A program made the position numbers and the translations under genes. From Microglena sp. YARC (Eukaryota > Chlorophyta > Chlorophyceae > Chlamydomonadales > Chlamydomonadaceae): 64,000 nucleotides of DNA. Each line of letters begins with the position of its first letter. The stretch's first letter is position 1. The notes below the pieces were generated by a model. That model ran no database searches, was not told the origin of the DNA, and saw only the letters and a program-made list of their open reading frames with translations. The stretch covers positions 1 to 64,000 of the forward strand of contig JAJSRW010001615.1 of assembly GCA_022414725.1 (NCBI GenBank). The letters are read 5' to 3'. Positions 17,936 through 59,294 of this stretch are shown piece after piece.

Positions 17936-18044
17936 TCAAGACACAACGCAGCAGCCGGAATCAGATGCTTCCTGTGCGAGCTTCCTCAGCAGGTCGTTGT
18001 CAAGGATGTAATGCAAGCGCTCCAACACTACATCCATGGATGGT
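17936..18044 (-). CDS. Kinase exon 12 (C-terminus, CaaX box)
   Basis: Completes Arg455, then PSMDVVLERLHYILDNDLLR, finishing the kinase lobe. It ends GCCVVS then TGA. The last four residues, CVVS, fit a CaaX box with X=Ser, the type usually farnesylated, and Cys486 just before could be palmitoylated (both inferred). Downstream lie short tandem repeats and AT-rich DNA, the probable 3' end region. Confidence 0.93.
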
Positions 18045-21000
18045 CTGCAATGAACAGCATGGGAGGTTCTTAGTGGTATGAGTGTGCAGAAGAGTTGCGG
18101 CGTGTGTGTGCGAAAGAGTCTTCAGACAAAAAATAAACCAGAGGTGCCTTTTATTACTTAGGTCATACCTAAGCGCCTCACCGATTTCAGTAATAATTCA
18201 AACAGAGGTTCCTAGTCAGGCAACCATGACACAAATACAAGAAGAGATGTCTAGTCCCACATCAAGCATATTCATCCACCAGGCGTTATCAGTACTTATC
18301 TCATACCTAAGCGCCACACGGATTTCCATAATAATTCAAACAGAGGTACCGAATGAGGTAGCAATTTATTTTTCTTCCATTGAGCTATCTAAATTACATT
18401 ACATTAGCCACGACACAAATAAAACAAGAAATGCCTAGTCCCACAACAAACATAATCATCAGGGTGATTTAAGCCCATTTTTGGCAGAGCCCCCTCTTCA
18501 AGGGGGCGGGAGTCACCAGGGTTACCCATTTGTCCGTCTGACTGTCTGGCCAAGACGAAGCTTGACATGTCAGCCAACTGTCTCATAAGTAATTGGCTTC
18601 CGTTGCCACCTGTAGCTCCGTAGCGAACACTCTCCGCCAATATTTAGCGTCGCTTGCGACGCTGCATAGAACTTGTTGTGGTTGGCCCCAGTGAAAGCAA
18701 ACAGGCTGGCCCCCTCAACCTCATGCCTTGTTATGAAGCATACAATTTATATATAAGCCCATTTTTTGTGGTTGGCCCCAGTGAAAGCAAACAGGCTGGC
18801 CCCCTGAACCTCATGCCTGGTTATAAGGCGAACTAATTATATATTTAAGCCCATTTTGAAATGGAGCGTGATAGCTGATGGCGCTAGATGGCTTACCGGT
18901 CCTTGGGGTTGGTTGCCCAACAGTCTTGAATGATAGTCTTCACCTCCTCAGCATAGTCCTTGTGAATGGGCGGTCTGAATGTGATCAATGGGTCAACGGG
19001 TAAGGGGTCAATGGATAAGGGGTGAATTGATACATAAATGAGTTATGAAAGGGGTCAAGGGATACATCAATGGTTTGCCTTATTACGAGGCATGAGGTTG
19101 AATGATAGACTTCACCTCCTCCGCACAGTCCTTGTGAATTGAGTGGTCTGAATCAATGGGTCAATGGATACAAAAAGGGGGTCAATGGATATTTGAATGA
19201 CTTATGAATAGGGTCAATGGATACATCAATGGTACTACATCAATGTTATTACCAGGCATGAGGTTGAATGATATAACGAGGCGAGCACTTGAATGATAGT
19301 CTTCACCTCCTATGCATAGTCCTTGTGAATGGGCGGTCTGAATGTGATCAATGGGTCAATGGCTCAGAGGTCGATGGATAATTAAATGAGGTATGAATGG
19401 GGTCAATGGATATATCAATGGAACGCCTTATTACGAGGCACGAGGTTGAATGATAGACTTCATCTCCTCCGCACTGTCCTTGTGAATTGAGTGGTCTGAA
19501 TCAATGGGTCAATGGATACATATAGGGGGTCAATGGATAAATAAATGAGCTATGAATGGGGGCTATGGATACATCAATGGAATGCCTTATAACAAGGCAT
19601 GAGGTTGAATGATAGTCTTTACCTCCTCCGCTTAGTCTTTGTGAATGGGTTGTCTGAATGTGATGAAGGGGCAATGGATACATAAATGGTGTGCCTTGTC
19701 CCTGCGCCTCCCTGCACCCTGTTCAGGCCGTAAAACAGGAGTTCAGGGTGTGAAACACCTGTTCGTGTGCATCATTGGCTAAGCATGTAGTTGTTGAACA
19801 GCTGGTCTGAATCAATGGGTCAATATCCCTGCGGCTCCCTGCACCCTGTTGAGGCCGTAAAACATATGTTCGGGGTGTTAAACACGTTTTCCCTTGGTGA
19901 TGATATCTTGAAGGAAACAAACAAAGTGGGTCGAAGAGGTTTACGCAAACCCCGGTTTTGCATTTCATTTTCTTTTTAAGATATCATCATAAAGGGGAAA
20001 CGTGATAAACAGCTGTTCAACAACTACATGGTTAGCCAATGATGCACACTAAGGTGTTTCACACCCTGAACTCCTGTTTAACGACCTCAACAGGGTGCAG
20101 GCAGTCGTAGGGAATGCCGTAGCACTGCACATACACAGCCACATACCCCAGGGTCACCCCATTATCCGTTTGTTTGTGCAACCGACACGCGTGCGACCGA
20201 GACGATGCCTGACACATCAGCCGACGGTCTCGTAACTAACTGGCTTCGGTCCGCTCGATTCCGTTGCCAACACTCTCCGCCAATGTCCAGCATCGCTTGC
20301 AATGCTACTTAGGACTTCCATTGCCACATACCTGTAGCCCTGCCCCCCTCCCCCCCCCCTAAAAAAAAAACCCACCACCTTCTCCCTGCACTTCCATAGT
20401 GTGTGTGTGTCTATAGAAGAGCTGTGTGAGTGGGTGGGTGTGAGGTGTGTTAGTGGTGCTGCACATCCATAGCCACATACCTGTAGCCCTGACTAACACG
20501 GTATGCATAATTCTCCACCTCCTGCTCAGTTCCATTTTGGCTGATGGCAAAGAAAACTGAGTACTTGTGGATCACCTCGTACAGGATGACACCAAAGCTG
20601 AACACATCAACCTGCACGAGTGTTTGTGTTTGTGTATGTGTGTATGTGTGTGTGTTTGTGTGGTGGTGGTGGGCAGGGCTACAGTTATGTGGCTATGGAA
20701 GTCCTAGGCAGCGTTGCAAGCTACGCTGATGGCGAAGAACACGGAGTACTTGTACAGGATGACACTGAAGCTGAACACATCAACCTGCATGAGTTCGTGA
20801 ATGTGCTGTAAGAGGGCAGTCCTTAGGCTTAGTGTAATCAGAAGGCTGTCCTTAGGCTTAGTGTAAGAAGAAGGCAGTCATTAGGGGCAGGGCACCACAT
20901 GTGAATGTGCAGTAAGACGAAGAGGATGAGGACGAGGAAGAAGAAGAGGAGGAGGAAGAGGAAGAGGAAGAAGAAGAAGGAGGAGGAGCAGGAGGAGGAG

Positions 21001-21652
21001 CAGGAGCAGGAGAAGGAATGAGGAAGTAGTAGAAGAAGGAAAATGGTTACAAGGTTCTATATGCCGGCAATTCGGCGTCGAAGCATCAGCAGAATACATT
21101 ACTTCCTCCTGTGCGACAACCAAGAAAAAACAAGGAAGCCAAGGCTTGAACTCAGACCGATTGTAGACATGTCCGAGTCTCTATCCTGACAATTTAACGA
21201 CATATCAAGACGCAGTAAGAATGCAGAAGTCCTTAGAATCCACCGACTGAACACCGATTACAACTTATTTTTTAACCCAAAAATAAGTTGAACAGGGAGT
21301 TTGAGGGGTTCTGGAAGTTGTTTGACTCAAAGCGGCCCAAATCTTAAAATCACAATAAATCACTTTTGGGCAACCCGATGAAAGATGAAAGATGAAAGAG
21401 TATAAACGATAGGGCGAGATTTTTGTTCATGTCCCCCATTTTAGGTGGGGTGGGGTAGGGTGGGGTAATGAGTTTTAGGGGGGGTAAGGGGGGCGAGATG
21501 GGTGGTGCAAACTTTATTTCACAACTTTATTTTACCCCTCCTCTTGGTTAAAACTTCTACAATTCCAACTCCCATTTGAATCGGACACCGTTTTGAACAT
21601 GCTGTCCAAAAGCTGTCTTCCCCCCCCCCCCCCCCCCCCCCCCCCTGAAGTA

Positions 21653-21689
<37 letters not shown>

Positions 21690-22910
21690 GTAATAATAAT
21701 AATAAAAAAAAAATACAAATAAACAAGCGTGCATGTCATGCTGCAGGACAACCTTTTATGTCACTCTCTCTCTCTCTCGCTTGCGCTTTATGGATGATTA
21801 TCTATCCAAGTTCAACTGACGACTGAATAATAAGCAAGCAAGCAATAATAATAATAATACCGGTAACAGGAGGAGCCCAGGCCACAGAATTTTCAGTCAG
21901 GCCGATCGATTTTTTCTGAGAACGGGGCTGTAATTGCATGTAACTAGGCGATATTACAAGTGGCTTTTTCAGGTCATTCTGAGCACCTCATTTAGGGGTG
22001 GGGTGGGGTGGGGTGTGTGGGGGGGGGTCAGCCCTCGTTTGTTTTTTTGCTAACTTTTTACTCACACCTCCAAATGAAATTCTGAGACCACCTATGAGTA
22101 GGCCTTGGTAAGGGTAGCCTACTGGCACCACTTTGGATCTCATGCAATGAGTACTTACCCCCCCCCAAAACCCTTTCCCCACCCCCCACCCAAATTATGA
22201 GAGGGTGAATGGCTGGGTATGGGTTGATAATATGGGGGAGTATGGTGTGGGGTGGGGTGGTGCCCCCCCCCCCCCACCCCCAACCGCCCCCCGCCTCGAC
22301 CCTCCACCATGTGACAACACCAAAACGCCGCCATTCTACCATGTTCTACGCGTTTGCTTTCTCTTCATTTCGGTATGCCTGATGCTGATGCTGAAGCTGG
22401 TCCGTCCACTACTGTTGTGTTTTAAATAATAAGAACTCCAGTTTTGGGCCGCCCCCTGCACAGGTGAAGGGTGTCTACAGTACTCGGACAACCCAGGGAG
22501 GGTGAAGAACTGATTTTTGACATAACACAATCCCTATGTGGGAATTCCGAGAATGCCATTATGTGCGCCATACTGTGAACCCCCAGAATCCATATCTAAG
22601 TTTTTCAAAAAGGGGTCATTTCTATATTTGGGGGGAGGAGGGGTCAGATCTTCCCAGTTTTTTTAGGCTTGGTGTGATCTATCATTTTATTTTTTTCCTC
22701 CCGCCGGTAGTAATAATGATGATAAAGAAAAAAGTGTGCATGTCATGCTGCAGGACAACCTTCTATGTCACTCTCCCTCTCTTGCATGCGCTTCATGGGT
22801 GATCAACCATCCAATTTCAACTGAAGACTGAAAAATGCTAATACTAATGGAAACTCACCCGCTCACTGTTGCGTGCAGATCAACAATCCAAGCTCAACTG
22901 AAGACTGAAC

Positions 22911-22945
<35 letters not shown>

Positions 22946-25900
22946 TAATAATAATACAAATAAAGCGTGCATGTCATGTTGCAGGACAACCTTCTAAGTC
23001 ACTCTCTCTGGCTTGCGGATCATGGACGATCAGCAATCCAAGTTCAAACAAAGACTGAACAATACTAATACTTAAAAAACGCACCCACTCTCTCTCTCTT
23101 GCTTGCGGATCAACCATCCAAGTTCAACTGAAGAATGAACAATAAGCCAATCATTTGTTCAAGTTCACATTTTCCTGGTAAATTTGTTTTTACTGCCTAG
23201 TTCAACCACCAAATTTGTTTTTACTGCCTAGTTCAACCACCAAATTCGTTTTTACTGCCTAGTTCAACCACCAAATTTGTTTTTACTGCCTAGTTCAACC
23301 ACCAAATTTGTTTGTACTGCCTAGTTCAACCACCAAATTTGTTTTTACTGCCTAGTTCAACCACCAAATTTGTTTTTACTGCCTAGTTCAACCACCAAAT
23401 TTGTTTTTACTGCCTAGTTCAACCACCAAATTTGTTTTTACTGCCTAGTTCAACCACCAAATTTGTTTTTACTGCCTAGTTCAACCACCAAATTCGTTTT
23501 TACTGCCTAGTTCAACCACCAAATTTGTTTTTACTGCCTAGTTCAACCACCAAATTTGTTTTTACTGCCTAGTTCAACCACCAAATTTGTTTTTACTGCC
23601 TAGTTCAATCACCAAATTCGTTTTTACTGCCTAGTTCAACCACCAAATTTGTTTTTACTGCCTAGTTCAACCACCAAATTTGTTTTTACTGCCTAGTTCA
23701 ACCACCAAATTCGTTTTTACTGCCTAGTTCAACCACCAAATTCGTTTTTACTGCCTAGTTCAACCACCAAATTTGTTTGTACTGCCTAGTTCAACCACCA
23801 AATTTGTTTTTACTGCCTAGTTCAACCACCAAATTTGTTTATACTGCCTAGTTCAACCACCAAATTTGTTTTTACTGCCTAGTTCAACCACCAAATTCCA
23901 GGCACACAAACCTTTTTCTAAGTTCAAGAATGGAAGGCAGACAGTCAGTCAGATAAACAGACAAGCTCACACAATTGCATGCACATTAAATAAATAAACA
24001 ACTAAATGAATAAATACATCAATGAACACATACACCTTACACCTTATGACGAGGCTTAAGGTTTAGGGGGCCAGTTTGTTTGCTTGCGCTGGGGCCAACC
24101 ACCACATTCCATGCATGTCCAACACACCTTCTCCCAAGATCGAGTTCAAGAATGAAAGGCAGACAGCCAGTCAGATAGATAAACAGAGAAGAGGAAATAA
24201 TAGCATTACATGTGCTACATACCTTCTCCCAAGTTCAAGTTCAAGAATGGAAGGCTGTCTGTCAGTCAGTCAGTCAGTCAGTCAGTCAGTCAGTCAGTCA
24301 GTCAGTCAGTCAGTCAGTCAGAGAAGTGGACATAACAGCATTACATGTACAACACACCTTCTCCCAAGTCCAAGTTCAAAAATGCAAGGCTGGCAGGAAG
24401 GTAGACAGTCTGTCAAACAAATAGGCAAGCGGACATAATAGCATTACATGAACAACCTACCTTCTCTGAGTAGTTATTCTCGTTTTTGTAGTGAAATGTA
24501 CAATACACCATACCATTACAAGCACTACATAGCATTACAAGCACAACCTACCTTCTCTGAGTAGTTATTCTCGGTTCTGTCATAAAATGTACAATACAAC
24601 ATAGCTTACAAGCACTACATACCATTGCAAGCACAACCTACTTTCTCTGAGTAGTTATTCTCGGTTCTGTCATAAAATGTACAACACACCATACCATTGC
24701 AAGCTCTACATAGCATACCAAGGACAACCTACCTTCTCTGAGTAGTTATTCTCGTTTTTGTACATCTCAGGGGACTGCGAGCAAAGGAAGTGGGTGCCAG
24801 TCAGGTGTGTGTATGCAGGTGTTGTGGTGTTGGCGTTGGTGGTGCTGTGGTGTTGTGTTGTGTTGGTGGTGCTGTGGTGTTGTGGTGATGATGTATGGGG
24901 TGGTTGCAGGGTTTGTACATCTCGAGGGACTGGGAGCAAAGGAGGTGGGCAACAGTCAGGTGTGTGTGCATGCAGGTGTTGTTGTGGTGGTATGCAGGTG
25001 TTGTGGTGTTGTGGTGATGATGTATGTGGTGGTTGCAGGGTTTGTTCATCTCAGGTGACTGTGAGCAAAGGGGACTGGGCAAGAGTCAGGTTTGTGTGTA
25101 TGCAGGTGTTGTGGTGATGATATGTGTGATGGTTGCAGGGTTTTGACATTTCAGGGGACTGGGAGCAAAGGAGGTGTGCAACAGTCAGGTTAGTGTGTAT
25201 GCGGGTGTTGTGGTGGTGCTGTTTTGTGGTGATAATGTGTGTGTGTTGTTGTGGTGGTGGTGCGTTGTTGTTGTTGTGGTGGTGGGTGCTGCGTTGTTGT
25301 TGTGGTGGTGCTGTGCTGATGATGTATGTGGTGGTTGCTTTATTGGAGGAGGGGCTCCGCGCTTTGCTCTCCATGGGGTTAGGGGGGCTGTGCGTTGCAC
25401 TGTGGTTGCACCGAGTCACTCAGTTTGCGACGCGATACTTAACAAAACAATAGTGGAGCTGCCTGTATACACCTCTTTCATTTTGGGGCTAAGCGTAGCA
25501 GCTTCAAGGCAGCTGCTTTCCCTCATCCTCAGAGTAAACCTGAAGCTAGCTAGTGTGACTGAAAGATGACATTAAGAGCATTTGAATGCAACTGAAAGCT
25601 TTGGACAATACCCAATGGCTGGCTATTGGAGCTGGCCGTAAGCTGCCACCCTTAGCCCCAAAAAGCAACAATGCTTCATAATGTATGGCTTATAAAAGGC
25701 CTGGGGATTATGTAAAATAAGTTGTGGGGCAATCTCTAAGCAAAAAATAAGTTGTGGGGCAATCTCTAAGCAAAAAATAAATTGTGGGGCAATCTTTTAG
25801 CAAAAAATGACTACCCATGTTTTAAAATTAGTATTCAGAATTCTATTTGTTTGTTAACATGTTGCAGTCCACAAACACACACACTAACAGACACAAACAC

Positions 25901-28900
25901 ACAGTAACAGACGCAAACACAAACACTAACACAAACACTCACCTTCCCAGCCTACAACTATTCACTTCAAGATGTTACAGCCCTTACCATAAAAGATATA
26001 TTAGATGTATAAGAGGTACAAGAGAGCTCAAATAAGAGGTACAAGGGGTACAAGAGAGCAAAGAAAAAGAAAGCACAGAAAAGAGGTACAAGAGAGCACA
26101 GAAAAAACAGAAAAGGGTATAAGGGGTACAAGAGAGCACACACAATATATATGAGGTACAAGAGTGCTAAAAAAAGAGGTATGAGGGGGATAATAGAGCA
26201 CACAAAATGGGTATCCGAGGTATAAGAAAGCACAAAAAACACAACATGTTTTAAAATCATTATTAGGAATACTGTATGTTGAGTAACATGTTACAGTCCT
26301 TACCATAGACATGAGCGAGCCAGTCTTCCCGCTAAGAATATGTGAGGTGTATGTTTGTATGTTATAGTCCAGGGGTAGGCCAAATAGGCTAAAGGGACTT
26401 GCCCAACTGCTAGGAAGAGCTTAAAAAGAAAAAGCACTGATAAACTGAGCCCCAAACAATTGTTTAACCGACGGGGGCCCTGAGTTCGTGCTACAGTGAT
26501 AATTTAATTCTAGGTGTATAAGAGGTATAAGGGGTACAAGAGAGCACACAAAACACAAAATAGTTTAAAATTCTGATTCAGAATACTGTATGCTCATTAA
26601 CTTGTTGCCTGCAATGCTGACTTTCCCCAGCTGCGGCGTACGGGAGGGTCCCCTTAACACCACGCCCCGCCAGGCGCTATCTTTTGTTTTAACATGTTGC
26701 AGTAAACTTACCATGTCCATGAGCGAGCCAGTCTTCCCGCTAAGAATATATATCAGGTGGATAAGAGGTGTAAGGGGGACAAGAGCACACAAAAAGGGGG
26801 TATCAGAGGTATAAGAGAGCACAAAAAACACATAATATATTGAAATTAGTATACTGTATGTTAATTAATATGTTGCAGAAAACGTACCATGTACATGAGC
26901 GAGCCAGTCTTCCCGCTAAGAAGCGCCTTGGGCTGTGCATGGGACAAAGGAGGGAAGGGGCGGGGGGGGGGGGGGGGGGGGGGGCTGAGTGAGGAAGCTA
27001 GGTGGGGGGGGCTCAGTGGTCAGGCAGAGTTTGGTTTGGTGTTGGTGGGTGTTGATGGTGTAGGTAGATGTTGGTGTGTGGAGGGTGGGCTCAGTGGTCA
27101 GGCAGGGTTTGGTCTGGGTGTTGGTGGGTGTTGGTGGGTGTAGGGTAGATGTTGGTGGGTGTAGGGTGGGCTCAGTGGTCAGGCAGGGTTTGGTCTGGGT
27201 GTTGGTGGGTGTTGATGGGTGGGTGGTGGTAGATGTTGGTGGGTGTTGGTGGGTGTAGGGTAGATGTTGGTGGGTGGAGGGTGGGCTCAGTGGTCAGGCA
27301 GGTTTGTCTGGTGTTGGTGGGGTGTTGATGGGTGGGTGTTGGTGGGGTGTTGCTGGGTGTAGGGTAGATGTTGGTGGGTGGAGGGTGGCTCAGTGGTCAT
27401 GGGTGGTGGTGGGTGGTCATGGGTGGTGGTGGGTGGTCATGGGTTGGTGGGTGGTCATGGGTTGGTGGTGGTCATGGGTGGGTGGGTGTCATGGGTGGGT
27501 GGGTGGTGGTCATGGGTTGGTGGGTGGTCATGGGTTGGTGGGTGGGTGGTCATGGGTTGGTGGGTGGTCATGGGTTGGTGGGTGGTCATGGGTGGGTGGT
27601 CATGGGTTGGTGGGTGGTCATGGGTGGGTGGTGGGTGGTCAGGCAGGGTTTGGTCTGGGTGTTGGTGGGTGTTGATGGGTGGGTGGTGGTAGATGTTGGT
27701 GGGTGTTGGTGGGTGTAGGGTAGATGTTGGTGGGTGGAGGGTGGGCTCAGTGGTCAGGCAGGGTTTGGTCTGGGTGTTGGTGGGTATTGATGGGTGTTGA
27801 TGGGTGGGTGGTGGTAGATGGTGGTGAGTGGGTGGGGTTGGGGTCCTAGGGGGGCCAGGCATCACATGGAAGCTATTGTTTGTATCTCATACCCCAGTTA
27901 TTAGCAAGTTATAAGCATACTACAAGTATGTTATAAGTACGCTATGCATGTTTTAAATACTTGTATGCATGTTATATATATATATGTATGTGAGCCCCTG
28001 TCAGTGCTATACAATGGTCTAGTGGTAGACCAGATCGCTTGAGGATGAAGAGTCGGGGGTTCGACTCCCCCTTTGGTCGCTCTTGGCGTTGCAGGTCGTC
28101 GTCAACCGCGGTAGCTTGTCCAGTTGAGGTAGGAGACCGCTTCCCACCCGCGTACGACGGGTTCCCTTAACATCACGCCCCACCAGGCGTTATCATTACC
28201 TTTTATATGTACGTATTTGCTTGTCTCACTAACCGCATGTAAGTTCTCAGCCGTGTATGCGCCTTCCCTACGTAAAACCAGGTTTGTTAACATATGCTTG
28301 TCTCACTCCCACCCACTTACCGCATGTAAGTTATCAGGCTTGTAAGCGCCTCCCCTGCGTTAACATGGGGTGGGGGCCTAGGGGGGCACATGGCATCACA
28401 TGGGGTGGGCCTAGGGGGGCAGGCGGCATCACATGGGGTGGGGCCTAGGGGGCACATGCATCACATGGGGTGGGGGCCTAGGGGGGCACATGCATCACAT
28501 GGGGTGGGGGCCTAGGGGGGGCAGGCGCATCACATGGGGTGGGGGCCTAGGGGGGGCACATGGTATCACATAGAAAGCTGTTGCTTGTCTCACTTTCCAT
28601 GGATTGGATTGGTTTGGTGTTGACGTGCTTTCGTGGGAAGAGGGTAGATGTTGGTGGGTGGAGGGTGGGTGGAGGGTGAGTGGAGGGTGGGTGTTGGTGG
28701 GTGTTGAAGGGCGTAGGGGGGTAGCATGCTTGTCTCACTTACCGCAGGTAGGTTCTCAGGCTTGTATGCGCCTCCCCTGCGTTTACATGGGGTTGTTTAA
28801 TTATGCTTGTCTCACTCCCACTCACTAACCGCAGGTAGGTTCTCAGGCTTGTATGCGCCTCCCCTGCTTTAACATTGGGTGGGGGCTTAGGGGGGCACAT

Positions 28901-29009
28901 GGCATCACATGGTAGCCCTTGCCTGTCTCACTTACCCCAGTTATTACCAAGTTATATGCATATAGGTTGTATGCATGTATACACCCTATGTGTATACATA
29001 AACCCGATG

Positions 29010-29059
<50 letters not shown>

Positions 29060-29442
29060 GCATGTGTGCTTGTCTCACTTACCGCAGGTCTCAGGCCTGT
29101 ATGCGCCCCCCCCCTACGTTGACATGGGGGTTTGGGGCCTAGGGGGGCACATGGCATCACATGGCAGCTGTTGCTTGACTCACTTAACATGGACTGGTTT
29201 GGTTTGGTGTTGGTGGGTGGAGGGTAGATGGTGATTAGTGGATGTTGATTGGTGTAGGGTAGATGGTGGTGAGTGGGTGGGGGGGTAGTATGCTTGTCTC
29301 ACTTACTGCAGGTAGGTTCTCAGGCTTGTATGCGCCCCCCCTGCGTTTACATGGGGTTGTTTAATTATGCATGTCTCGCTTACCCCAGTTATTAGCAAGT
29401 CATATGCATATAGGTTGCATGCATATATACACCATATATACA

Positions 29443-29486
<44 letters not shown>

Positions 29487-32400
29487 CATGTGTGCTTGTC
29501 TCACTTACCGCTGGTAGGTTCTCAGGCTTGTATGCGCCGCCTCTGCGTGTGCTCTTGTCAAACATGTTCCCGGCCCTCACGCTCTTCTCAAAGAAGTTGC
29601 CCCCGCCCCGAATACTCTTGGATTCTTGAAAGTTGTTATTTCTGACACTCTTGTCGAAGAAGGAAGTGCCCCCTCTGACACTAGCTTCAATAGCCCCCAG
29701 CAAGGTTGACTTTGCGCCAGTCAGGTTGCGGGTACCAGTCATCCGGTCCATCATCTCTTTTGCGCTTTCGTCAAAGTCAGCATCGGTGGGCATTGGAAGG
29801 AGGGGACTGCAACAAGAGGATGTGTGTGTGTATGTGTGTGTGTGTGTGTGGGGGGGGGGGGGGGGCACGTGTGGGTGTGTGTTGTGGGTGGGTGGGAGGG
29901 AAAGGGGCAATGTCATTGCCTGCTCCCACTGCAAAGTTCAGACTGTAATGAATGTGGATCAAACAGGGCATCACAGATTGCCGCTAGCAGTCATCCGGTC
30001 CATCACCTCTTTTGCACTTTCGTCAAAGTCAGCATCTGTGGGCATTGGAAGGAGGGGACTGCAACAAGAGGGGGAGGAAGTAGTGTTTGCGTGCTCCCAC
30101 TGTGTGTGTTTGTATTTGTATTTGTGTTAGCATGCTCCCACTGTTTGTGTATTTGTACTTGTATTTGTATTTGCATGCTTACACTGTGTGTATTTGTATT
30201 TGCATGCTTACACTGTGTGTATTTGTATTTGCATGCTTACACTGTGTGTATTTGTATTTGTGTTAGCATGCTCCCACTGTGTGTGTATTTGTATTTGCAT
30301 GCTTACACTGTGTGTATTTGTATTTGTGTTAGCATGCTCCCACTGTGTGTGTATTTGTACTTGTATTTGCATGCTTACACTGTGTGTATTTGTACTTGTA
30401 TTTGTGTTAGCATGCTCCCACTGTGTGTGTATTTGTATTTGTATTTGCATGCTTACACTGTGTGTATTTGTATTTGTGTTAGCATGCTCCCACTGTGTGT
30501 GTATTTGTACTTGTATTTGCATGCTTACACTGTGTGTATTTGTATTTGTGTTAGCATGCTCCCACTGTGTGTGTATTTGTATTTGCATGCTTACACTGTG
30601 TGTATTTGTATTTGTGTTAGCATGCTCCCACTGTGTGTGTATTTGTACTTGTATTTGCATGCTTACACTGTGTGTATTTGTATTTGTGTTAGCATGCTCC
30701 CACTGTGTGTGTATTTGTACTTGTATTTGCATGCTTACACTGTGTGTATTTGTATTTGTGTTAGCATGCTCCCACTGTGTGTGTATTTGTATTTGCATGC
30801 TTACACTGTGTGTATTTGTATTTGCATGCTTACACTGTGTGTATTTGTATTTGCATGCTTACACTGTGTGTATTTGTATTTGTGTTAGCATGCTCCCACT
30901 GTGTGTGTATTTGTACTTGTATTTGCATGCTTACACTGTGTGTATTTGTATTTGTGTTAGCATGCTCCCACTGTGTGTGTATTTGCACTTGTATTTGCAT
31001 GCTTACACTGTGTGTATTTGTATTTGCATGCTTACACTGTGTGTATTTGTATTTGCATGCTCCCACTGTGTGTGTATTTGTACTTGTATTTGTATTTGCA
31101 TGCTTACACCGTGTGTATTTGTATTTGCATGCTTACACTGTGTGTATTTGTATTTGTGTTAGCATGCTCCCACTGTGTGTGTATTTGTACTTGTATTTGC
31201 ATGCTTACACTGTGTGTATTTGTATTTGCATGCTTACACTGTGTATTTGTACTTGTATTTGTATTTGCATGCTTACACTGTGTGTATTTGTATTTGCATG
31301 CTTACACTGTGTGTATTTGTATTTGTGTTAGCATGCTCCCACTGTGTGTGTATTTGTACTTGTATTTGCATGCTTACACTGTGTGTATTTGTATTTGTGT
31401 TAGCATGCTCCCACTGTGTGTGTATTTGTACTTGTATTTGCATGCTTACACTGTGTGTATTTGTATTTGTTTTAGCATGCTCCCACTGTGTGTGTATTTG
31501 TACTTGTATTTGCATGCTTACACTGTGTGTATTTGTATTTGCATGCTTACACTGTGTGTATTTGTATTTACATGCTCCCACTGTGTGTGTATTTGTACTT
31601 GTATTTGTATTTGCATGCTCCCACTGTGTGTGTGCTTGTACTTGTATTTGTATTTGCATGCTCCCACTGTGTGTGTGTTTGTACTTGTATTTGTATTTGC
31701 ATGCTTACATTGTGTGTATTTGTATTAGTGTTTGCATGCTCCCACTGTGTGTGTTTGTACTTGTATTAGCATGCCCCCACTGACTGCGTGTATCTGTATT
31801 TGCATTCTCATTTGTATATGCATGCTCCCACTGTGTGCGAATTTGTATTTGCACACTCCAGGGGTGGCCTAAAAGGCTTGAAGGACGCGTGTGTGTGGTG
31901 GTGGGTAGTGGGTATGTGGGAGTGTGGGTGGGTGTGTGGGTGGGGGGAATACGAGTTATTTCTGGGCAGTAGTGGGTACTAGTGATGTAAGTTAAGGTTT
32001 TTCGATGAGATAAAAAAATGGGGTTCTCTGATACAAGAAATAAAAAATAAGAGGAGGCGAGAGAAAGGGACTAAAGCCCCAACCTTCAAAAAAGGAAAGG
32101 CGACCGCAAAAGTCAACACTGGTGAGCTGAACCCCAACAAATTGTAAATGTACCCCCACTGTTCCGAATTCGGATTATACAGGGCATCGCAAATCAATGG
32201 ATAAAAAATAGTACGCCTTTTTACGAGGCGTGAATGAAAGGGCCAGCCTGTTTTCATCTCAAAAAGTCCTATGCAGCGTCGCAAGCGACGCTGAAAATTG
32301 GCAGAGTGTGTTGGCAACAGAACGAAAGGTGGCAACAATGGAACTGACCAAAGCGAGTTAGTTACGCGACCGTTGGCTGACGTGTCAGGCTTCAATTTTC

Positions 32401-33412: not shown

Positions 33413-33443
<31 letters not shown>

Positions 33444-42229: not shown

Positions 42230-42286
<57 letters not shown>

Positions 42287-44588: not shown

Positions 44589-44623
<35 letters not shown>

Positions 44624-44831: not shown

Positions 44832-44878
<47 letters not shown>

Positions 44879-50129: not shown

Positions 50130-50161
<32 letters not shown>

Positions 50162-51004: not shown

Positions 51005-51046
<42 letters not shown>

Positions 51047-51171: not shown

Positions 51172-51229
<58 letters not shown>

Positions 51230-54200
51230 CACACACACTACACATACACAGACATGCACACATGCAAACATGCACATGCACACATGTACACACACAGGCA
51301 TGCACATGCACACAAGCAAGCAGGCATACATGCACACATGCAAAGAGGCATACATGCACATGCAAACGTGCACACACACATATGTACACATGCAAACGTG
51401 CAAACTTACAGACATACACATATGCACATGTAAACATGCACACACGCACACATGTACACATGCACATGTACACATGCAAACATGCACACATGGATACACA
51501 AACGTGCCCACACACATGCACATGTACACACGCACACATGCAAACACGCACATGCACACATGCAAACACGCAGACATGCACACATGCACACACGCAGACA
51601 CGTACATACATACACATGTGAGTGTGCACACACGCACACATGCACACTTACAGACACAGACGTGCACACTTGCACATGTAAGTATGCAAGCATGTACGCA
51701 CCCACACGCATGCACACATGCAAACATGCAGGCAGTCATACATGCAGACACACAGGCATGCACACACGCAGACATGCACACATGCAAACATGCAGGCATG
51801 CACGCACATATACATGCACACATGCACATGCAGCCATGCACACATGCTGACATTTAGACATGCACACTTGCAAACACACAGACATGCAAACACGCATACA
51901 TGCACACATTCACACATGCGCACATGCACAGGCATGCGTACATGCACACACACAGACATGCACACATGCACACACACATGTATGCACACATGCACACACG
52001 CAGGCATGCATACATTCACACATGCACACATGCACATGTACTCTTGCACACATACACACACATGCATGCATACATTCACACAAGCACACATGCACTTGTG
52101 CAGGCATGCACACAGGCTCACATGCATAAACGCACACAAGTGCATATGCACCCCCCACTCATCCATCCACCCCCCATTTGCAGTGATCTGGACCCCCCCC
52201 CCCCCCCCCCCCCCACCACCACCACCACCACACACACACACGCACACATATACACGCACACATTAACAAACACACACATTCTCCACCCTCCCACCCACCC
52301 TCCCACCCCAATGATCAGGTAGTGTAGCAGCCATCAAGACCCCCCTCATAGTTCACGAGCTTCAAAAGCTTGGTGTGGTGAAGATCGTCGCAACCAACAG
52401 CGCCAAGCACTTTTTGGGCGAGCAGCTGCAAAACCAGATCCCCCCTAGTGCTCGTCCTATTTTGGGGGTAGGTGGGTAGGGGGTGGGGGGTGGGGTGGGT
52501 TAGGGTTGGGGCACACATGAGAAATGTTGCAACCAACAGTGCCAAACACGTTTTGAGCGAGCAACTGCAAAACCAGATCCCCCCCTAGTGCTCGTCCTAT
52601 TTTGGGGGTATGTGGATGGGGGTGGGGTTGTGGGGTGGGTGGGTGGGAGTCAGGTTGTGGGGTGGGTTGTGGTTGGGGTGGAGTTGTAGGGTGGGGTGGT
52701 GTGGGTTAGGGATGGGGGGGGGGGTATGAAATGTTGCAACCAGCAGTGCCAAACACGTTGTTGTGTATGCCGAAGTACCATGCAAAATTAAAAATATGTG
52801 TCTAACCAACGTTTTTAGATTTTAATTAACTTTTTATAAGTTTTCGAAGATAAGTTAATTCAAATCCCATGAACTAACTTTTTACCTTTAACTAAGCAAG
52901 ACTAACGCCATGAACTAACTGCCGGAGTACACCAAAGTTGTTGTGATCTGGGGTTGGGGTCGTGGGGTTGGGGTGTGGGGTGGGTGGTGTGGATTTGGGG
53001 TTGTGGGGTGGGTGGTGTCGGGTTGTGGGGTGTGGGGTGGGTGGTGTGGATTTGGGGTTGTGGGGTGGGTGGTGTCGGGTTGTGGGGTGTGGGGTGGGTG
53101 GTGTGGGGGTTTCAAACAGCGCCAAACACTTGTTTCGTGAGCAGCTTTACAACCAGATCCCCACTGTTTGTTAGTCCTATTTTGCAGGTAAGTGGCCGGG
53201 GCTGGGGGTGGGGGTGTGAATGGTTTTGGGTATGTTTGGGTGTGTGGATGGGTGTGGGTAAGTGTGTAGGTATGGGAGTGTGCGTGTGTGTGTGTGTGGG
53301 GGGGGGAGTGTGTGTGTAGGTATATGATTGCGTGTGTGGGAGGGTGTGGGAGTGTGCATGTATGCACGTGTCTGTGTGGGCAAGGTGGCGTGTGTATGGT
53401 GTGTGTGTGGGGTGGGGCATGTGTGGGTGTGTGTGTGTGGTTCTGTGTCGTTAGGGTGTGGTCAGGGTGGAGTTGTGGGGTGACGGTGCAAGTGTATGCA
53501 AGTGTGTGGGCAGGGTGGGGGGTGGGGTGGGGGGTGGGGGCATGTGTGGGTGGGTGGGTGTGGGTATGTATGTCCCCCCCCCCCCCCCCCCCATCCCCTC
53601 CTCCCCCCTCCGACCCCTCCACCCCCTTCACCCCCTCCACCCCCTCCACCCCCTCCATCCCTCCACCCCCCACCCCACCCACCCCCCACCCCCACCCCCC
53701 CCCTCCACCCCTCCATCCTCTACCCACAATCGAACCGCCCCTCGCGCTCACAAACACACTCTTCCACTATACAAACTGGACAAAGCACGAGTAACCCATC
53801 CCCACCCCCCAGACCCACCCCCAGCCTTACCCCCACCCACACTGCACCACCACATGCACATGACAAGGACACGTGGTGCAAGTGGCTGGAGGTGGGAGTG
53901 CCCCCACCCCACCCCCACTGCGCCACCACCACCATGACTACCACCATCACCCCCACCACCGCCGCCACCACCATCGCCACCACCTTTACCGCCACCACAT
54001 GCATAGGATGCAGACGAGTGGCGCAAATGACAGGCTGTCAGAAACGAGGTTTTACACGTAGAGTTTGTCCACCCCACTCCTACCACCACCACGACTAGTA
54101 CCATCACTACCGCCTCCTTGTCCACGACCACATGCACTGGAAGAGGATGAGTAGCGCAAATGGCAGGTGGTTGGAGAGGAGGTTGTTCACATAGAGTTTG

Positions 54201-55397
54201 TCCACCCCACCCCTACCACCACCACGACTAGTACCATCACTACCGCCTCCTTGTCCACGACCACATGCACTGGAAGAGGATGAGTTGCGCAAATGGCAGG
54301 TGGTTGGAGAGGAGGTTGTTCACATAGAGTTTGTCCACCCCACCCCTACCACCACCACGACTAGTACCATCACTACCGCCTCCTTGTCCACGACCACATG
54401 CACTGGAAGAGGATGAGTAGCGCAAATGGCAGGTGGTTGGAGAGGAGGTTGTTCACATAGAGTTTGTCCACCCACCCCTACCACCACACGACTAGTACCA
54501 TCACTACCGCCTCCTTGTCCACGACCACATGCACTGGAAGAGGATGAGTAGCGCAAATGGCAGGTGGTTGGAGAGGAGGTTGTTCACACAGAGTTTGTCC
54601 CCCCCCCCCCTCCCCCCCTCCCTCCTCCATCTCCCCCTCCTCTCCCCCTCCTCCCCACCATCTTCCCCCTCCTCCTCCTCCTCCTCCCCACCATCCTCCT
54701 CCCTCCTCCGCCCGGCCTTGTGCTCATAAACCATAAACCCTGAATCATAGAACCCTACACCCTACAAACTAAACCCTACACCCATACAAACAGGACGAGG
54801 ACGAGTGGCGCACCCTCCTCCTCCCCCCCCCACCCCCCACCCTCTACCCTCTCCACCCCTCTACCCTCTCCCCCACCTCCCCACCTCCTCCCCCCTCCTT
54901 CCTTCCCCCCACCCCTCCCCCAACCCACTCCCTCTGCACCACCACATGCACACAGGACGAGGACGAGTGGCTTAAGTGGCAGGCGGTGGGAGAGGAGCTT
55001 CCCCTCTTCCCTCTTCCCCGTCCTCCCCCTCCTTCCCCTCCTCCACCAAACACCCCATACCCCTTAGCCCCCCTCCCCCCCCTCTCTCCCATCTCCTCTC
55101 CTCCTCCTCCTTCCCCTCTCCACCAACTCCCCCCCCCCCCCCTCCCCCTCCTCCCACTCCACCATCCTCCCTCCTCCTCCCCCCAACACCCCATATCCTG
55201 TAGCCCCCCCCCCCCCCCCTCCTCCCTCCTCCCTCTCCCCCCCCCCCCCCCAACACACCCATACCCCTCCCCATCCCTTTTCTCCTCTCCCATCTCCTCT
55301 CCTCCTCCCCCCCCCTCTCTCCACCATATTCCTCCTCCTCCCCTCCTCCTCTCCCCAATCCCACCCATACCCCCCTCTTCACCCCCAATAACCCATA

Positions 55398-55429
<32 letters not shown>

Positions 55430-58400
55430 CTCCCCCCCCTCCTCCCCCCCCCTCAGGGTTCATAAACCCTAAACCATACAAACAGGACGAGGACGAGTGC
55501 GCAAGTGGCAGGTGGTGGGAGAGGCGGTTGTTCATATGGAGTTGTGCCCCCCACCATTACCCCCCCCCCCCCCCCCCCTCCACTGCACCACACCACCACC
55601 ACCACCACCATCACGCACCACCATGACTACCATCATCACCACCACCATAGGACGAAGACGAGTGGCGCAAGTGGCAGGTGGTGGGAGACAAGGTTGTTCA
55701 CATAGAGTTGTGCCCCTCCCCCCCCACCCCCCCCCCCCCCACCACCACCACCACTGCACCATCACCATCAGAACTACTACCACCACCACCACCACCGTCA
55801 CCACTACCATCACCACCACCACGACTAACCCCCAGACCCGCCCCACCCCTACCCCAAAGCCCAGGCCCGCCTCCACCCCTACCCAACCCCCACTGCACCA
55901 CCACCACCACGACTACCACCATCACCGCCACTACCGTCACCACCACCTTTCCCACCACAACATGCACACAAGACGAGTATGAGTTGCCCAAGTGGCAGGC
56001 GGTGGGTGAGGAGGTTGCTTACATAGAGTTGTGTCTCCCCCACCCTTACCCCAACCCCCACTTCACCACCCCACAACTACCACCACGACCGCCACCACCA
56101 CCGCCACTACAATCGCCACCGCCACCTTTTACCACAACCACAACCTTTACCACCACCAAATGCACAAAGTGAGGATAAGAGGCGCAAGTGGCAGGCGGTG
56201 GGAGAGGAGCTCCCCTCCTCCCCACAACCCCACAACCCCGCATCTCCCTACCCACCATCATCCCCTCCTGTCCTTCCCTCTCTCCTTCCCCCCCCCCCCC
56301 CCCCCTCCCCTCCTCCCCCACAACCCCTCAACCCCCGATCTTCCCTCCCCCCATACCAACAGGACGAGGACGAGCGGCACAAGCGGCAGTTGGTGGGATA
56401 TAAGGTTGTTCACATATAGTTGTGTCCCCACACCCTTACCCCAACCCCACTGCACCACCACCACGCGACTACCACCATCACCACCACCACCACCGCCGCC
56501 ACCACCACCACCACTACCACCACCACCACCCACCTTTACTACCACACATGCACACAGACAAGGACTAGTGGCGCAAGTGGCATGCGGTGGGAGAGGAGGT
56601 TGTTCATGTAGAGTTGACCTGCCCCCTCTCCTCCCCCCCCTCTACCCTCTCCATTCTCTCCACCACCTCCACCCCTCATCCCCATCCTTCACCCTCCTCC
56701 ATTCCAACCTCCCAACCCCCTCTACCCCCTCCTCCCCCCTCCCCTCTCCTCCCTCCCCCCCCCCCCCCCCCTCCCCTCTACCCTCTCCATTCTCTCCACC
56801 ACCTCCATCCCTCATCCCCATCCTTCACCCTCCTCCACTCCAACCTCCCAACCCCCTCCTCCCCTACCCTCTCCTCCCTCCCCCCCCCCATCTACCCTCG
56901 TCCACCCCTCCTCCCCTCCTCCCCTTCCCCAACCCCTACCCCAACTCCCAAACCCGCCCCCGCCCCACCCCCACTGCATCACCACATGCACACAAGATGA
57001 AGACAAGTAGAGGAAGTGGCAGGGATGGGAGAGAGGGAGGAGGGGGGAGCTCCTCTCCCCCCCCTCCCCCCCTCCCCCCCAACACCCAAATCCCCTACCC
57101 ACCATCTCCCCCCCAACACCCACCTCCCTCTCCTCCTCCCCCCCCCCTTTACCCCCATCTCCCCCCCACACCCACCTCCCTCTCCTCCTCCCCCCCCTTA
57201 CCCACCATCTCCCCCACACCCACCTCCCTCTCCTCCTCCCCCCCCTTACCCACCATCTCCCCCCCACACCCACCTCCCTCTCCTCCTCCCCCCCCCCTTA
57301 CCCACATCTCCCCCACACCCACCTCCCTCTCCTCCTCCCCCCCCCTTACCCACCATCTCCCCCCCACCCCACCTCCCTCTCCTCCTCCCCCCCCCCTTAC
57401 CCACCATCTCCCCCCCCACACCCACCTCCCTCTCCTCCCCCCCCCCCCCCCCCCCACCTTCCCCCTTCGTCCCCCTCCTACCTCTCCCCCTCCTCCCCCT
57501 CCTCCCCCCAACACCCCCTATCCCCCTATTCCCCCCTCCTCTCCCCCCTCCCTCTCCTCCTCCCCCTCTCCACCATCTTCCCCCTCCTCCCCTCCTCCTC
57601 CTCCCACACCATATTCCCCCTCCTCCCCCCCCCCCCCCCCCCCCAGCGCTCATAAACCCTAATCCCATACGAACAGGACGAGGATGAGTGGCGCAAGTGG
57701 CAATTGGTGGGAGACAATGCTGTTCATATAGAGTTGCGCAGCCCCCTCTCCTCCCCCCCCCCCCCCCTCCCCCTCTCTACCCTCTCAATTCACTCCAACC
57801 CCTCCTCCCTCCTCCCCCCCAACCCCCTTCTCCCCCTCCACCCCAACCCTTCCCAACCCCCAGATCCTCCCTCCCCCACTGCATCACCACATGCACACAT
57901 GACGAGGACGAGTGGCGCAAGTGGCAGGCGGTGGGAGACGAGGTTGTTCACATAGACTTGCGCAGCCCCCCTCTCCTTCCTCCCCCCCCCCCCCCCCCCC
58001 TCCCTCCACCCCCTCCACCCTCCTCCACCCCACCCCTTCTTACCCTTCCTCCTCCATCCCCCAACCCCCCACCCCTACCCAACCGCAACCCCAAGAGCCA
58101 CCCCCTCCCCCACCCCACTCCCACTGCACCACCACATGCACACAGGACAAAGACGAGTGGCGCAAGTGGAAGTGGCTCCCTCTCCCTCCCCCCTCCTCCC
58201 CATCCTTCCTCTCCTCCCTCCCAACCCCTCATCTCCCCCTCTCCCCCCCTCCTCTCCCTCCCCCCCCAACCCCCCAACCCCCAACCCCCCATCTCCTCTA
58301 CCCCCATGCACAGGGCGAGGACGAGTGGCGCAAGTGGCAGGCGGTGGGAGACGAAGTTGCCCATATATATTTTTGCCCCCCCCCCCCCCCCCACACACAC

Positions 58401-59294
58401 ACACCCCCTCCTCTCTCTCCCTCCTTCTCCTCCTCCCCCCCACCCCTCCTCCCCCCCTCCTCCCCCAACCACCCCAACCCCCCAACCCAACCCAACCCAC
58501 GACCCGCCCCCTCCCTCTACTCCCACCCCCACTGCACCACCACATGCACACAGGACGAGGAGGAGTGGCGCAAGTGGCAGGTCGGTGGGATGAGGTTGTT
58601 CACATAGAGTTGCGCCGCTGGGCCGATGTCCTTGTCATCGCTCCCCTGTCCGCCAACACTCTAGCCAAGATGGCGGCTGGCATGTGTGACAATCTGCTCA
58701 CTTGTATCGTGCGCGCTTGGGACTTCTCAGCTTACCCAATGCTGGTGAGTAGCTATCACAACCACCGCCTCAGTCATAACCACCACCACAGCCACAGCCA
58801 TCACCACAACTATCACCACCACCACCATCACCACCACCACAACTACCACCACCACCATAACTACCACCACAACTATCACCACCACCACCACCACCACCAT
58901 AACCACCACCAAAAGTAGCACCTCCTCCACCAACACTACCCCACCCCCCCCACCCCACCCCACCCACCCCACACACACACCACACACACCACCATACACA
59001 CACACACCACACACACACACCACCACTCACTCATACCAACACAAACATCGTAGGTTGCACCAGCCATGAACACCCTACTGAGGAACCATCCCTTCACCTC
59101 TCAACACCTCAACTATCACCACCAACAACAACACTACCACTACCCACCCACCCTACCCACCACCCACGCACACACACACACCAACACCAACACCAACACC
59201 AACACCATAGGTCGCACCAGCCATGAACACCCTAATGTGGGATAGTCCCTTCACCTCTCAGCACCTCAACGTTTTGAAGGGACTCGGCGTTACG
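50886..59294 (+). CDS. Phosphopantothenoylcysteine decarboxylase (HAL3/PPCDC), 3' incomplete
   Basis: Exons 50886-50940, 52319-52467, 58554-58744 and 59211-59294. PPCDC is an FMN enzyme of coenzyme A synthesis that decarboxylates 4'-phosphopantothenoylcysteine. Seen: [19 protein letters not shown] (flavoprotein start), [20 protein letters not shown] with the catalytic His, [17 protein letters not shown], and the substrate-recognition motif [12 protein letters not shown]. All are close to plant HAL3. The last part of the family, with the ACGD cysteine, was not found before 60 kb. Exon 3 is 191 bp where 192 would keep the frame, so the gene is frame-broken, mis-assembled or spliced differently. 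A very large intron 2 holds 19 copies of the 5' edge of exon 3. Confidence 0.88.
50941..52318. repeat. PPCDC intron 1: (CA)n and ACACATGCA repeats
   Basis: From 50960 to about 52150 nearly all sequence is CA dinucleotide or ACATGCACACATGCAAAC-like units, then polyC at 52193-52214 and CACCACCA. Long His/Thr/Cys open frames are products of the repeat. No regulatory feature recognised. Confidence 0.9.
52319..52467 (+). CDS. PPCDC exon 2
   Basis: 149 bp: [20 protein letters not shown], then [16 protein letters not shown] and a segment ending PILG. Acceptor GATCAG, donor GTAGGT, ends in phase 0. Copies of its 3' half with GT donors follow at about 52.52 and 53.11 kb. The last copy has an in-frame stop, so this copy is taken as real. 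Confidence 0.9.
52520..53190 (+). repeat. Copies of the PPCDC exon 2 donor edge
   Basis: GCAACCAACAGTGCCAAACAC, then AACCAGATCC and GCTCGTCCTATTTTGGGG with a GT donor at ~52520-52608; a short piece at ~52733; a third at ~53112-53190 with CCTATTTTGCAG|GTAAGT but an in-frame stop. Confidence 0.88.
53866..58380 (+). repeat. Nineteen copies of the PPCDC exon 3 acceptor edge
   Basis: ACGAGGACGAGTGGCGCAAG-type copies near 53866, 54005, 54142, 54278, 54407, 54537, 54792, 54955, 55487, 55652, 55972, 56172, 56362, 56561, 56996, 57676, 57900, 58144 and 58315. Most also keep GTTGTTCACATAGAGTTG, and many keep the acceptor ATGCACACAG. CCACCACC and CTCCCCC repeats fill the spaces. Long Pro-rich frames here are not genes. 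Confidence 0.93.
58554..58744 (+). CDS. PPCDC exon 3 (catalytic His), with one-base frame break
   Basis: Begins after CACACAG with GACGAGGAGGAGTGGCGC (DEEEWRKWQ). It then reads [19 protein letters not shown] in another frame, through to SAYPML, donor GTGAGT. The 19 upstream copies mostly read CAGGCGGTGGGAGACGAGG, but this exon has CAGGTCGGTGGGATGAGG, one base shorter. In frame 0 a TAG follows after 17 codons. Length 191 bp against an expected 192. This could be a real mutation or an assembly indel in GC-rich DNA. Confidence 0.85.
59053..59110 (+). repeat. Copy of the PPCDC exon 4 acceptor edge
   Basis: GTAG|GTTGCACCAGCCATGAAC, then CACCTCTCAACACCTCAAC, matching real exon 4 at 59211 but reading LLRNHP in place of LMWDSP and lacking a donor. 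Confidence 0.85.
59211..59294 (+). CDS. PPCDC exon 4 (PAMN motif)
   Basis: 84 bp, phase 0 at both ends: [20 protein letters not shown] then VLKGLGVT. Contains the conserved PAMNxxMW of PPCDC. Acceptor CCATAG, donor GTACGA. A partial copy of its 5' edge lies at 59053-59110 with LLR in place of LMW, so that copy is judged a decoy. Confidence 0.9.

What the first reader, a model, noticed from the sequence alone, without database searches (positions are those of the whole stretch)
17936..59294. Introns built from copies of the neighbouring exon edges
In the kinase gene, exons 2-11 all have partial copies of their own 5' or 3' edge in the adjacent intron. Each copy spans a splice site and 15-90 bases of exon. 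Copy numbers: exon 2, 7 acceptor + 1 donor; exon 3, 7; exon 4, about 10; exon 5, 1; exon 6, 3 whole copies; exon 7, 6 donor + 1 acceptor; exon 8, 3; exon 9, 3 + 3; exon 10, 1-3; exon 11, 4. The PPCDC gene (exons 2, 3, 4) and the exon at 7044 show the same thing. Three genes sharing it suggests a genome-wide process of intron growth by repeated tandem duplication anchored at exon edges. I know of no described system matching this.
Basis: seen in the sequence. Interest (0 to 1): 0.92.

Follow-up and report, generated by a model that had tools for sequence, protein, structure and literature searches.

The report
Introns grown by stuttered local copying
In this green alga short stretches of DNA keep being copied next to themselves, so introns fill with repeats that often include the edge of the neighbouring exon; the same oddity was named 'sequence stuttering' in bird genomes in 2026, and here it turns up in unrelated genes of an alga.

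Summary
In the kinase gene, 10 of 12 exons have partial direct copies of an edge in the adjacent intron; PPCDC and the 7044 exon show it too. A published exon-stuttering screen, re-run here, gives 33 hits in 9 of 13 window introns and none in distal or shuffled introns. Elsewhere in the 568-Mb genome 47 of 100 sampled splice edges are positive.

'Anchored at exon edges' fails. Splice sites lie inside a local duplication about as often as surrounding intron: window 17/29 vs 0.587; genome 0.520 vs 0.522 at 150-500 bp, or 0.51 vs 0.465 at 150-780 bp, CI of the difference -0.03 to 0.12. Best reading: unbiased local tandem duplication; edge-straddling duplicates survive as neutral intron. A PPCDC copy on contig C1 with 93-95% identical exons has a 3.5-kb intron with 3 exon-3 copies, against 6.1 kb and 19 here.

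'No described system' is wrong too: 'sequence/exon stuttering' of chicken dot chromosomes (PMC12954441) has this anatomy. New are the green alga, the spread over unrelated genes, the penetrance and the ordinary GC.

The parts
17936..47363 (-). protein kinase gene (database relatives are named shkE-like and kinase-like proteins of green algae); exons high-low: 47363-47267, 43294-43161, 41070-40948, 37525-37391, 35613-35572, 33290-33211, 29806-29509, 26932-26888, 24774-24733, 20611-20481, 18974-18897, 18044-17936
   Evidence: homology, splice sites and complete spliced frame
43300..44051 (-). K2 acceptor array: 7 tandem copies, each intron end + 36-47 nt of exon, AG kept in 6 of 7
41195..42579 (-). 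K3 acceptor copies, 6-7, each with 26 nt of exon, separated by (AGAC)n/(CATA)n
36043..37297 (-). K4 donor copies in a ~105-bp tandem array
35425..35450 (-). K5 donor copy
32480..33091 (-). three near-whole copies of K6 in the downstream intron, all with the donor GT lost
29975..30112 (-). K8 acceptor plus about 80 nt of exon copied upstream ('K7'); used as an exon in gene model P0009
28220..29346 (-). K8 donor copies
26174..26746 (-). K9 donor copies (2)
24912..25218 (-). K10 acceptor copies (3)
24438..24670 (-). K10 donor copies (3, period ~91)
20725..20805 (-). K11 acceptor copy
20314..20342 (-). K11 donor copy
19098..19823 (-). K12 acceptor copies (4-5, period ~159)
52319..59294 (+). PPCDC gene, located exons 52319-52467, 58554-58744, 59211-59294; exon 3 carries a frameshift relative to homologues
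52532..53230 (+). two copies of the PPCDC exon-2 donor end
53844..58377 (+). 19 copies of the PPCDC exon-3 acceptor end in one intron
58992..59113 (+). one copy of the PPCDC exon-4 acceptor end
6819..6917 (+). one copy of the acceptor end of the exon at 7044

Best explanation
The introns grow by frequent local, direct, tandem duplication of segments of tens to hundreds of bases, which then expand and decay as imperfect arrays. The duplications fall without regard to the splice site. One that lies in the intron is neutral. One that straddles a splice site is close to neutral as well: the exon-attached splice site stays in place and the extra exon edge becomes intron. One inside an exon is mostly removed by selection. 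Exon-edge copies are therefore bystanders, conspicuous because the exon is a frozen master that keeps its copies recognisable. Shown: locality, direct orientation, strict side, no density peak at the splice site, decline into exons, near-neutral decay of the copies, and different intron length and copy number in a second gene copy. Inferred: tandem duplication as the act, exclusive use of the exon-attached site, selection as the reason for clean exons, and the molecular cause (replication slippage or break repair with unequal exchange).
For: (1) No peak at the splice site. Window: 17 of 29 splice sites spanned vs 0.587 of 1733 intron points and 0.589 of 1535 points over 150 bp from any edge; with corrected boundaries and a 1.4-kb range 17/29 vs 0.562 of 1734, between 0.565 and 0.588 from 0 to 1200 bp. 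Genome, 100 edges: 0.520 vs 0.522 at 150-500 bp; with equal search range for all points, edge 0.51, 20-60 bp 0.53, 60-150 bp 0.584, 150-300 bp 0.55. (2) Edges follow their intron: 0 of 19 edges spanned where the local intron rate is under 0.05, 18 of 20 where it is at least 0.95, r = 0.60. (3) Side: 106 of 106 acceptor copies upstream and 110 of 110 donor copies downstream, as tandem duplication requires and dispersed insertion would not; copies that span no splice site were left out. (4) 0 inverted and 0 distal hits (112 exon-intron cells) in the screen of the window. (5) Frozen master, free copy: differences at codon positions 1/2/3 are 34/502, 44/509, 85/511 in 39 kinase copies, and 511/2911 in the intron part of the 62 copies: positions 1+2 show about half the intron divergence. 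(6) Splice dinucleotides of copies: GT kept in 87/110 (expected 88.3), AG in 92/106 (expected 81.7). (7) C1 copy of PPCDC: exons 93-95% identical, intron 3472 vs 6086 bp, exon-3 copies 3 vs 19, exon-2 copies 0 vs 2.
Against: In the kinesin/kinase set alone the edges (36/56 = 0.643) exceed all flank points over 150 bp away (0.526 of 4665), partly because points near locus ends had a shorter search range; the 150-500 bp comparison was chosen after seeing the profile. With equal range the rate falls beyond 500 bp to 0.397 of 1487, and edges stand 0.045 above points at 150-780 bp (CI -0.034 to 0.124); a broad exon-near bias is thus possible, although the window shows none to 1200 bp. Exon interiors are not clean everywhere: 0.184 of 342 kinesin/kinase points and 0.116 of 320 TCP1 points. 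Copies with both splice sites are absent (0, against 216 with one), but only 2.1 events were expected, a figure based on short array periods and so probably low. The three near-whole K6 copies lost GT while 18 of 18 other donor copies of the window kept it, but they are related by descent, and partial donor copies elsewhere lose GT as well (kinesin/kinase 12 of 68, TCP1 8 of 24). AG is kept more than expected. Junction microhomology was uninformative. No RNA data were available.
Confidence: 0.82

Rival explanations
1. Duplication is targeted to exon edges or to the exon-near intron, for example by the spliceosome, R-loops or chromatin marks.
For: 10 of 12 kinase exons have an edge copy; in sampled loci rates fall beyond 500 bp (0.397); PMC3887541 reports tandem repeats concentrated toward intron ends in two green algae (abstract and passages).
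Against: No excess at edges in the window; over 100 sampled edges the maximum lies 60-200 bp into the intron (0.575-0.576; 0.584 at 60-150 bp), not at the edge (0.50-0.51).
Confidence: 0.07
2. Repair-mediated capture: double-strand breaks are patched by copying DNA from nearby (synthesis-dependent strand annealing), inserting non-tandem copies.
For: Similar size and closeness to the human proximal duplications of PMC2671141 (passages), which include intron splice sites.
Against: Capture can insert on either side of an exon and in inverted orientation; here 216 of 216 splice-spanning copies are on the tandem-predicted side and 0 proximal hits in the window are inverted. That paper excluded duplications within 50 bp as tandem. 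Capture could still supply the first duplicate of an array.
Confidence: 0.06
3. The copies are functional decoys or alternative splice sites kept by selection.
For: AG kept in 92 of 106 acceptor copies (expected 81.7); the K8 copy was used as an exon in model P0009.
Against: Donor GT is kept at the rate of other bases (87/110 vs 88.3); first and second codon positions change at about half the intron-part rate, as expected if only the copy is free; several PPCDC copies carry stops.
Confidence: 0.03
4. Assembly artefact (long-read duplication or collapsed repeats).
For: Long homopolymer and array tracts, and a frameshift in the window's PPCDC exon 3.
Against: Copies differ from the exon edge by 12% (exon part) and 18% (intron part), the kinase exons form an intact frame, and loci on other contigs of the assembly show it.
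Confidence: 0.02

Closest known systems
Sequence stuttering / exon stuttering of avian dot chromosomes (PMC12954441, Genome Biol Evol 2026; sections 7, 9 and 16 read, other passages seen)
   Same: Imperfect direct tandem repeats of tens to hundreds of bases filling introns; exon edge plus splice site copied into the adjacent intron; median exon part 36 bp and 4 copies in chicken, 10-75 nt (75 was my probe limit) and 1-19 copies here; exons left intact.
   Different: Green alga; seen in sampled genes on several large contigs rather than on dot chromosomes; GC about 0.47-0.49 in sampled DNA rather than GC-rich; 47 of 100 sampled edges, and 9 of 13 introns in the window that drew attention, versus 3.4% of dot-chromosome introns; variation between individuals not testable here.
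Intronic tandem repeats of green algae (PMC3887541, abstract and passages seen)
   Same: Introns carry the highest tandem-repeat density in Chlamydomonas reinhardtii and Volvox carteri.
   Different: That survey reports enrichment toward intron ends and does not, in the passages seen, mention exon-edge copies; here density is flat to 1200 bp in the window but lower beyond 500 bp in sampled loci.
Repair-mediated proximal duplication (PMC2671141, passages seen)
   Same: Short nearby duplications that can include splice sites.
   Different: Not tandem, orientation can be inverted, 824 in the human genome; here tandem side only.
Tandem exon duplication and internal gene duplication (Kondrashov and Koonin 2001; Gao and Lynch 2009: recalled, not read)
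   Same: Local direct duplication within genes.
   Different: Those concern whole exons or new introns that are used; here exon edges that become intron.

Membership tests
Sequence/exon stuttering (PMC12954441) | Introns filled with locally expanded imperfect direct repeats | tested here: met
   0.587 of 1733 intron points lie in local direct duplications, reversed control 0.006
[quoted passage not shown]
   9 of 13 window introns, 33 proximal, 0 inverted, 0 distal, 0 shuffled hits; 47 of 100 sampled edges. Their multi-source filter and manual false-positive review were not repeated, and my exons come from homology, not RNA
Sequence/exon stuttering (PMC12954441) | Extensive intron length variation between individuals | not testable with these tools
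   one assembly only; two copies of PPCDC in it differ 3472 vs 6086 bp
Sequence/exon stuttering (PMC12954441) | Concentration on GC-rich dot chromosomes (an association reported there, not stated as a definition) | tested here: not met
   GC 0.469 in ten random stretches, 0.492 in exon flanks; positive loci on contigs of 46-195 Mb (lengths; positives)
Minisatellite arrays | Head-to-tail units of about 10-100 bp | tested here: met
   83 arrays of period 20 or more in the window, median period 28; K2 array
Repair-mediated proximal duplication | Non-tandem insertion, free side and orientation | tested here: not met
   216 of 216 splice-spanning copies on the tandem side; 0 inverted proximal hits in the window
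Tandem whole-exon duplication | Copy of a complete exon with both splice sites | tested here: not met
   0 copies span both sites, 216 span one; K6 near-whole copies lack a donor
Introners | A family of similar introns inserted in many unrelated genes | not tested
   no cross-gene intron family search was made

The most novel reading that the evidence does not exclude
Sequence stuttering is not a bird or GC-rich peculiarity but a general eukaryotic mode of intron growth, and this alga carries it as a genome-wide mutator state in which most intron DNA descends from serial local tandem duplication rather than from mobile elements. Exon edges would then act as a built-in clock and direction marker for dating each intron's growth.
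Probability: 0.4. Interest if true: 0.82.

Novelty: new member of a known kind. Interest (0 to 1): 0.6.

Why it matters
It moves a phenomenon reported this year as avian, and tied there to GC-rich dot chromosomes, into a green alga with ordinary GC and at higher penetrance in the sample tested, so GC richness is not required. It shows that splice sites themselves are passengers rather than targets. It offers a tractable way to study intron growth: the exon is held by selection, so each edge copy has a known origin, direction and relative age. It also warns gene annotation: an edge copy was taken as an exon in a public gene model (P0009).

Tried and rejected
Microhomology at junctions of recent tandem duplications: 82 candidates, many inside longer arrays, so the excess lengths are uninformative. 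By eye the K2 junction shares ACAAA with its flank; one case only.

Self-comparison with simple sequence masked undercounted edges (8 of 29), because splice sites here often lie in C-, CA- and pyrimidine-rich sequence; replaced by unmasked probes with a reversed-sequence control. First boundaries of eight exons were off by 1-4 nt; corrected and re-run, again 17 of 29.

Intron-only process: window non-genic points are low (0.131), but ten random genome stretches average 0.386 with wide spread (0.003-1.0), so duplication is not confined to introns.

Selection against whole-exon copies: 0 seen, 2.1 expected: inconclusive. Rfam and tRNA scans found nothing at their thresholds. Pfam gave no family for the 7044 exon.

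Rows dropped before counts: kinesin, the 30 of 128 matches that had loci (L034 gave no edge); kinase paralogues, 6 of 9 other matches (L008 overlaps L003; two had no locus); TCP1, 30 of 64 matches had loci, less L049 (intronless), L054 (one match over nearly the whole model) and L061 (4 stops), and L067 gave no edge. Kinesin and TCP1 edges were dropped where the match ended within about 5 positions of the model end or no splice site was found. Some loci overlap (L024/L027, L010/L038, L017/L036, L009/L020), so edges are not all independent; intervals resample loci, not genes. Splice sites of sampled loci were inferred from homology ends, frame and consensus. One search listed 12 pairs of overlapping kinesin exon matches within 6 kb (from 109 of 128 rows typed in); not used further.

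On the required check I added (equal search range); it led me to report the fall beyond 500 bp and to lower the confidence from 0.85 to 0.82.
Full report
What is there. The window is contig C260:1-64000 of a 568,105,699-base assembly. Its genes look like those of a chlorophycean green alga: the kinase's best named matches are green-algal (Haematococcus lacustris 52% identity over 58% of the query), and one EukProt model is 100% identical over 42% of the query. The kinase gene on the minus strand has twelve exons that splice into one complete frame. PPCDC on the plus strand has three located exons. The exon at 7044 has no Pfam match.

The observation. For each splice site I took flanking sequence and searched the adjacent intron. 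One search finds 62 copies that span a splice site, at 17 of 29 edges, with 90-bp probes and a reversed-sequence control, also of 29 (the sets differ by one edge each). The copies are direct, on average 88% identical in the exon part and 82% in the intron part, and carry 10-75 nt of exon, 75 being the probe limit. Several sets are plain tandem arrays, such as the seven K2 copies at about 100-bp spacing.

Is it special to exon edges? Not in the window. The same probes placed every 20 bases show 0.587 of 1733 intron points inside a local direct duplication, and 0.589 of 1535 points more than 150 bp from an edge, against 0.586 for splice sites; the profile is level from 0 to 1200 bp. Exon points fall to 0.307 of 114. 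In the masked self-comparison the exon rate falls from about 0.4 within 45 nt of the edge to 0 beyond 100 nt. Non-genic window points are 0.131 of 1347.

Is it genome-wide? Loci of kinesin-motor exons and kinase paralogues gave 36 of 56 edges spanned, TCP1 chaperonin exons 16 of 44. Over these 100 edges the edge rate is 0.520 and the rate 150-500 bp into the same intron is 0.522 (difference -0.002, 95% interval -0.082 to 0.075). That comparison was chosen after a first profile, and points near locus ends had a shorter search range, so I repeated it with an equal 650-bp range: edge 0.51, 20-60 bp 0.53, 60-150 bp 0.584, 150-300 bp 0.55, 300-500 bp 0.505, 500-780 bp 0.397. Edges stand 0.045 above the 150-780 bp mean (interval -0.034 to 0.124). 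There is thus no peak at the splice site, but in these loci a decline beyond 500 bp, which may reflect neighbouring exons, gene ends, inserted elements or a real exon-near bias. Edges follow their own intron: 0 of 19 spanned where the intron is clean, 18 of 20 where it is full of duplications. Genes differ: chaperonin introns stutter less than kinesin introns. Exon interiors of the sampled loci are lower (0.184 of 342; 0.116 of 320) though not zero. Ten random 6-kb stretches average 0.386.

The published screen. With the chicken screen's settings (BLASTn-short, 20 nt, bit score 42.1) the window gives 33 hits in 9 of 13 introns, none inverted, none in 112 non-adjacent exon-intron pairs, none in shuffled introns; the sampled edges give 47 of 100, kinesin and kinase 34 of 56, TCP1 13 of 44. 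Chicken dot chromosomes give 190 of 5572 introns (PMC12954441, section 7). The window was picked because it looked unusual, so the 47 of 100 is the fairer figure.

How it works. Three tests point to tandem duplication of arbitrary segments followed by near-neutral decay. First, side: all 106 acceptor copies lie upstream of their exon and all 110 donor copies downstream. That must be so if a segment straddling the splice site is duplicated head to tail and the exon-attached copy stays functional; it need not be so if copies are inserted nearby at random. Second, decay: first and second codon positions differ between kinase exons and their copies at 78 of 1011 sites, third positions at 85 of 511, and the intron part of all copies at 511 of 2911. 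Constrained exon sites thus show about half the divergence of sites free on both sides, as expected for a frozen exon and a free copy. Third, GT in donor copies is lost at about the rate of their other bases, AG in acceptor copies somewhat less. No copy with both splice sites was seen; the three near-whole K6 copies have lost the donor GT. This fits selection against extra exons, but only 2.1 such events were expected and partial copies elsewhere also lose GT.

Growth seen in a pair. PPCDC has a second copy on C1 (L079). Exons 2 and 3 are 93% and 95% identical, yet the intron between them is 3472 bp with 3 exon-3 copies and no exon-2 copy there, and 6086 bp with 19 and 2 copies here. Whether this is a paralogue or a displaced allele is open: a search with one exon of the kinase next door found no near-identical partner (best other match 70%), which favours a paralogue. 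The window's PPCDC exon 3 has a frameshift that the C1 copy lacks, so the window gene may be decaying or contain a sequence error; the kinase, kinesin and chaperonin results do not depend on it. A pair of kinesin loci 26 kb apart (L021, L035) is 98% identical over 1.7 kb and then diverges into different arrays, and by eye the L035 exon end resembles the first intronic copy of L021 more than its exon; exon and copy may have recombined.

What is known. The anatomy is that of 'sequence stuttering', with its 'exon stuttering' form, described on chicken dot chromosomes in February 2026 (PMC12954441; sections 7, 9 and 16 read). [quoted passage not shown] A search for 'sequence stuttering', 'exon stuttering' and 'intronic stuttering' found only that paper; other searches bearing on exon-edge copies in introns were made, and I looked into three further papers (PMC11228838, PMC3887541, PMC2671141) by passages only. 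The library holds open-licence papers only, so absence from it is weak evidence of novelty. Of the three main features named there, repetitive introns and exon fragments are met; length variation among individuals could not be tested. GC here is about 0.47-0.49. A 2013 survey found tandem repeats densest in introns of two green algae and more abundant toward intron ends (PMC3887541), which suggests a wider algal tendency.

Verdict. A real, strongly non-random feature found in unrelated genes across the assembly. The observed part is confirmed; the 'anchored' and 'undescribed' parts are not. It is a new member of a recently named kind, in a green alga, more penetrant in the sample tested than in chicken and without the GC association.

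Noticed in passing
window 29975-30060: The copied 5' end of kinase exon K8 was annotated as an exon in EukProt model P0009, which repeats LLPMPTDADFDESAKE; edge copies corrupt gene models.
   Followed up: yes
window 58554-58620: PPCDC exon 3 has a net one-base frameshift relative to homologues, most of its own intronic copies and the C1 copy; the gene copy may be decaying or the base call wrong.
   Followed up: partly
window 60879-63443: LINE-type element: endonuclease and reverse transcriptase domains (Pfam); no probe point in 60-64 kb is called duplicated.
   Followed up: no
L021 and L035: Kinesin loci 26 kb apart, 98% identical over 1.7 kb, then different arrays; by eye the L035 exon end matches L021's first intronic copy better than its exon, suggesting recombination between exon and copy.
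   Followed up: partly
G000 C505, C1, C3, C5, C846, C2346 and others: About a dozen long, mostly uninterrupted open frames with weak kinesin-motor matches over positions ~10-243; possibly a multiplied or mobile single-exon gene.
   Followed up: no
L049 (C6:13962293-13963762): Intronless full-length Cpn60 frame (544 aa) in an otherwise intron-rich genome; transfer, organelle-derived or contaminant.
   Followed up: no
window 52468-59210, sense strand: PPCDC introns are strongly C- and A-rich on the sense strand (A+C 0.635 and 0.857); kinase introns average 0.54.
   Followed up: no
L041: Random C1 stretch made of a satellite with a period of about 59-60 bp (all probe points duplicated).
   Followed up: no
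window near 17600, 26650, 28180, 33830, 35900: A dispersed short element around 'CACGCCCCACCAGGCGTTATC' recurs, seen by eye, in both orientations.
   Followed up: no
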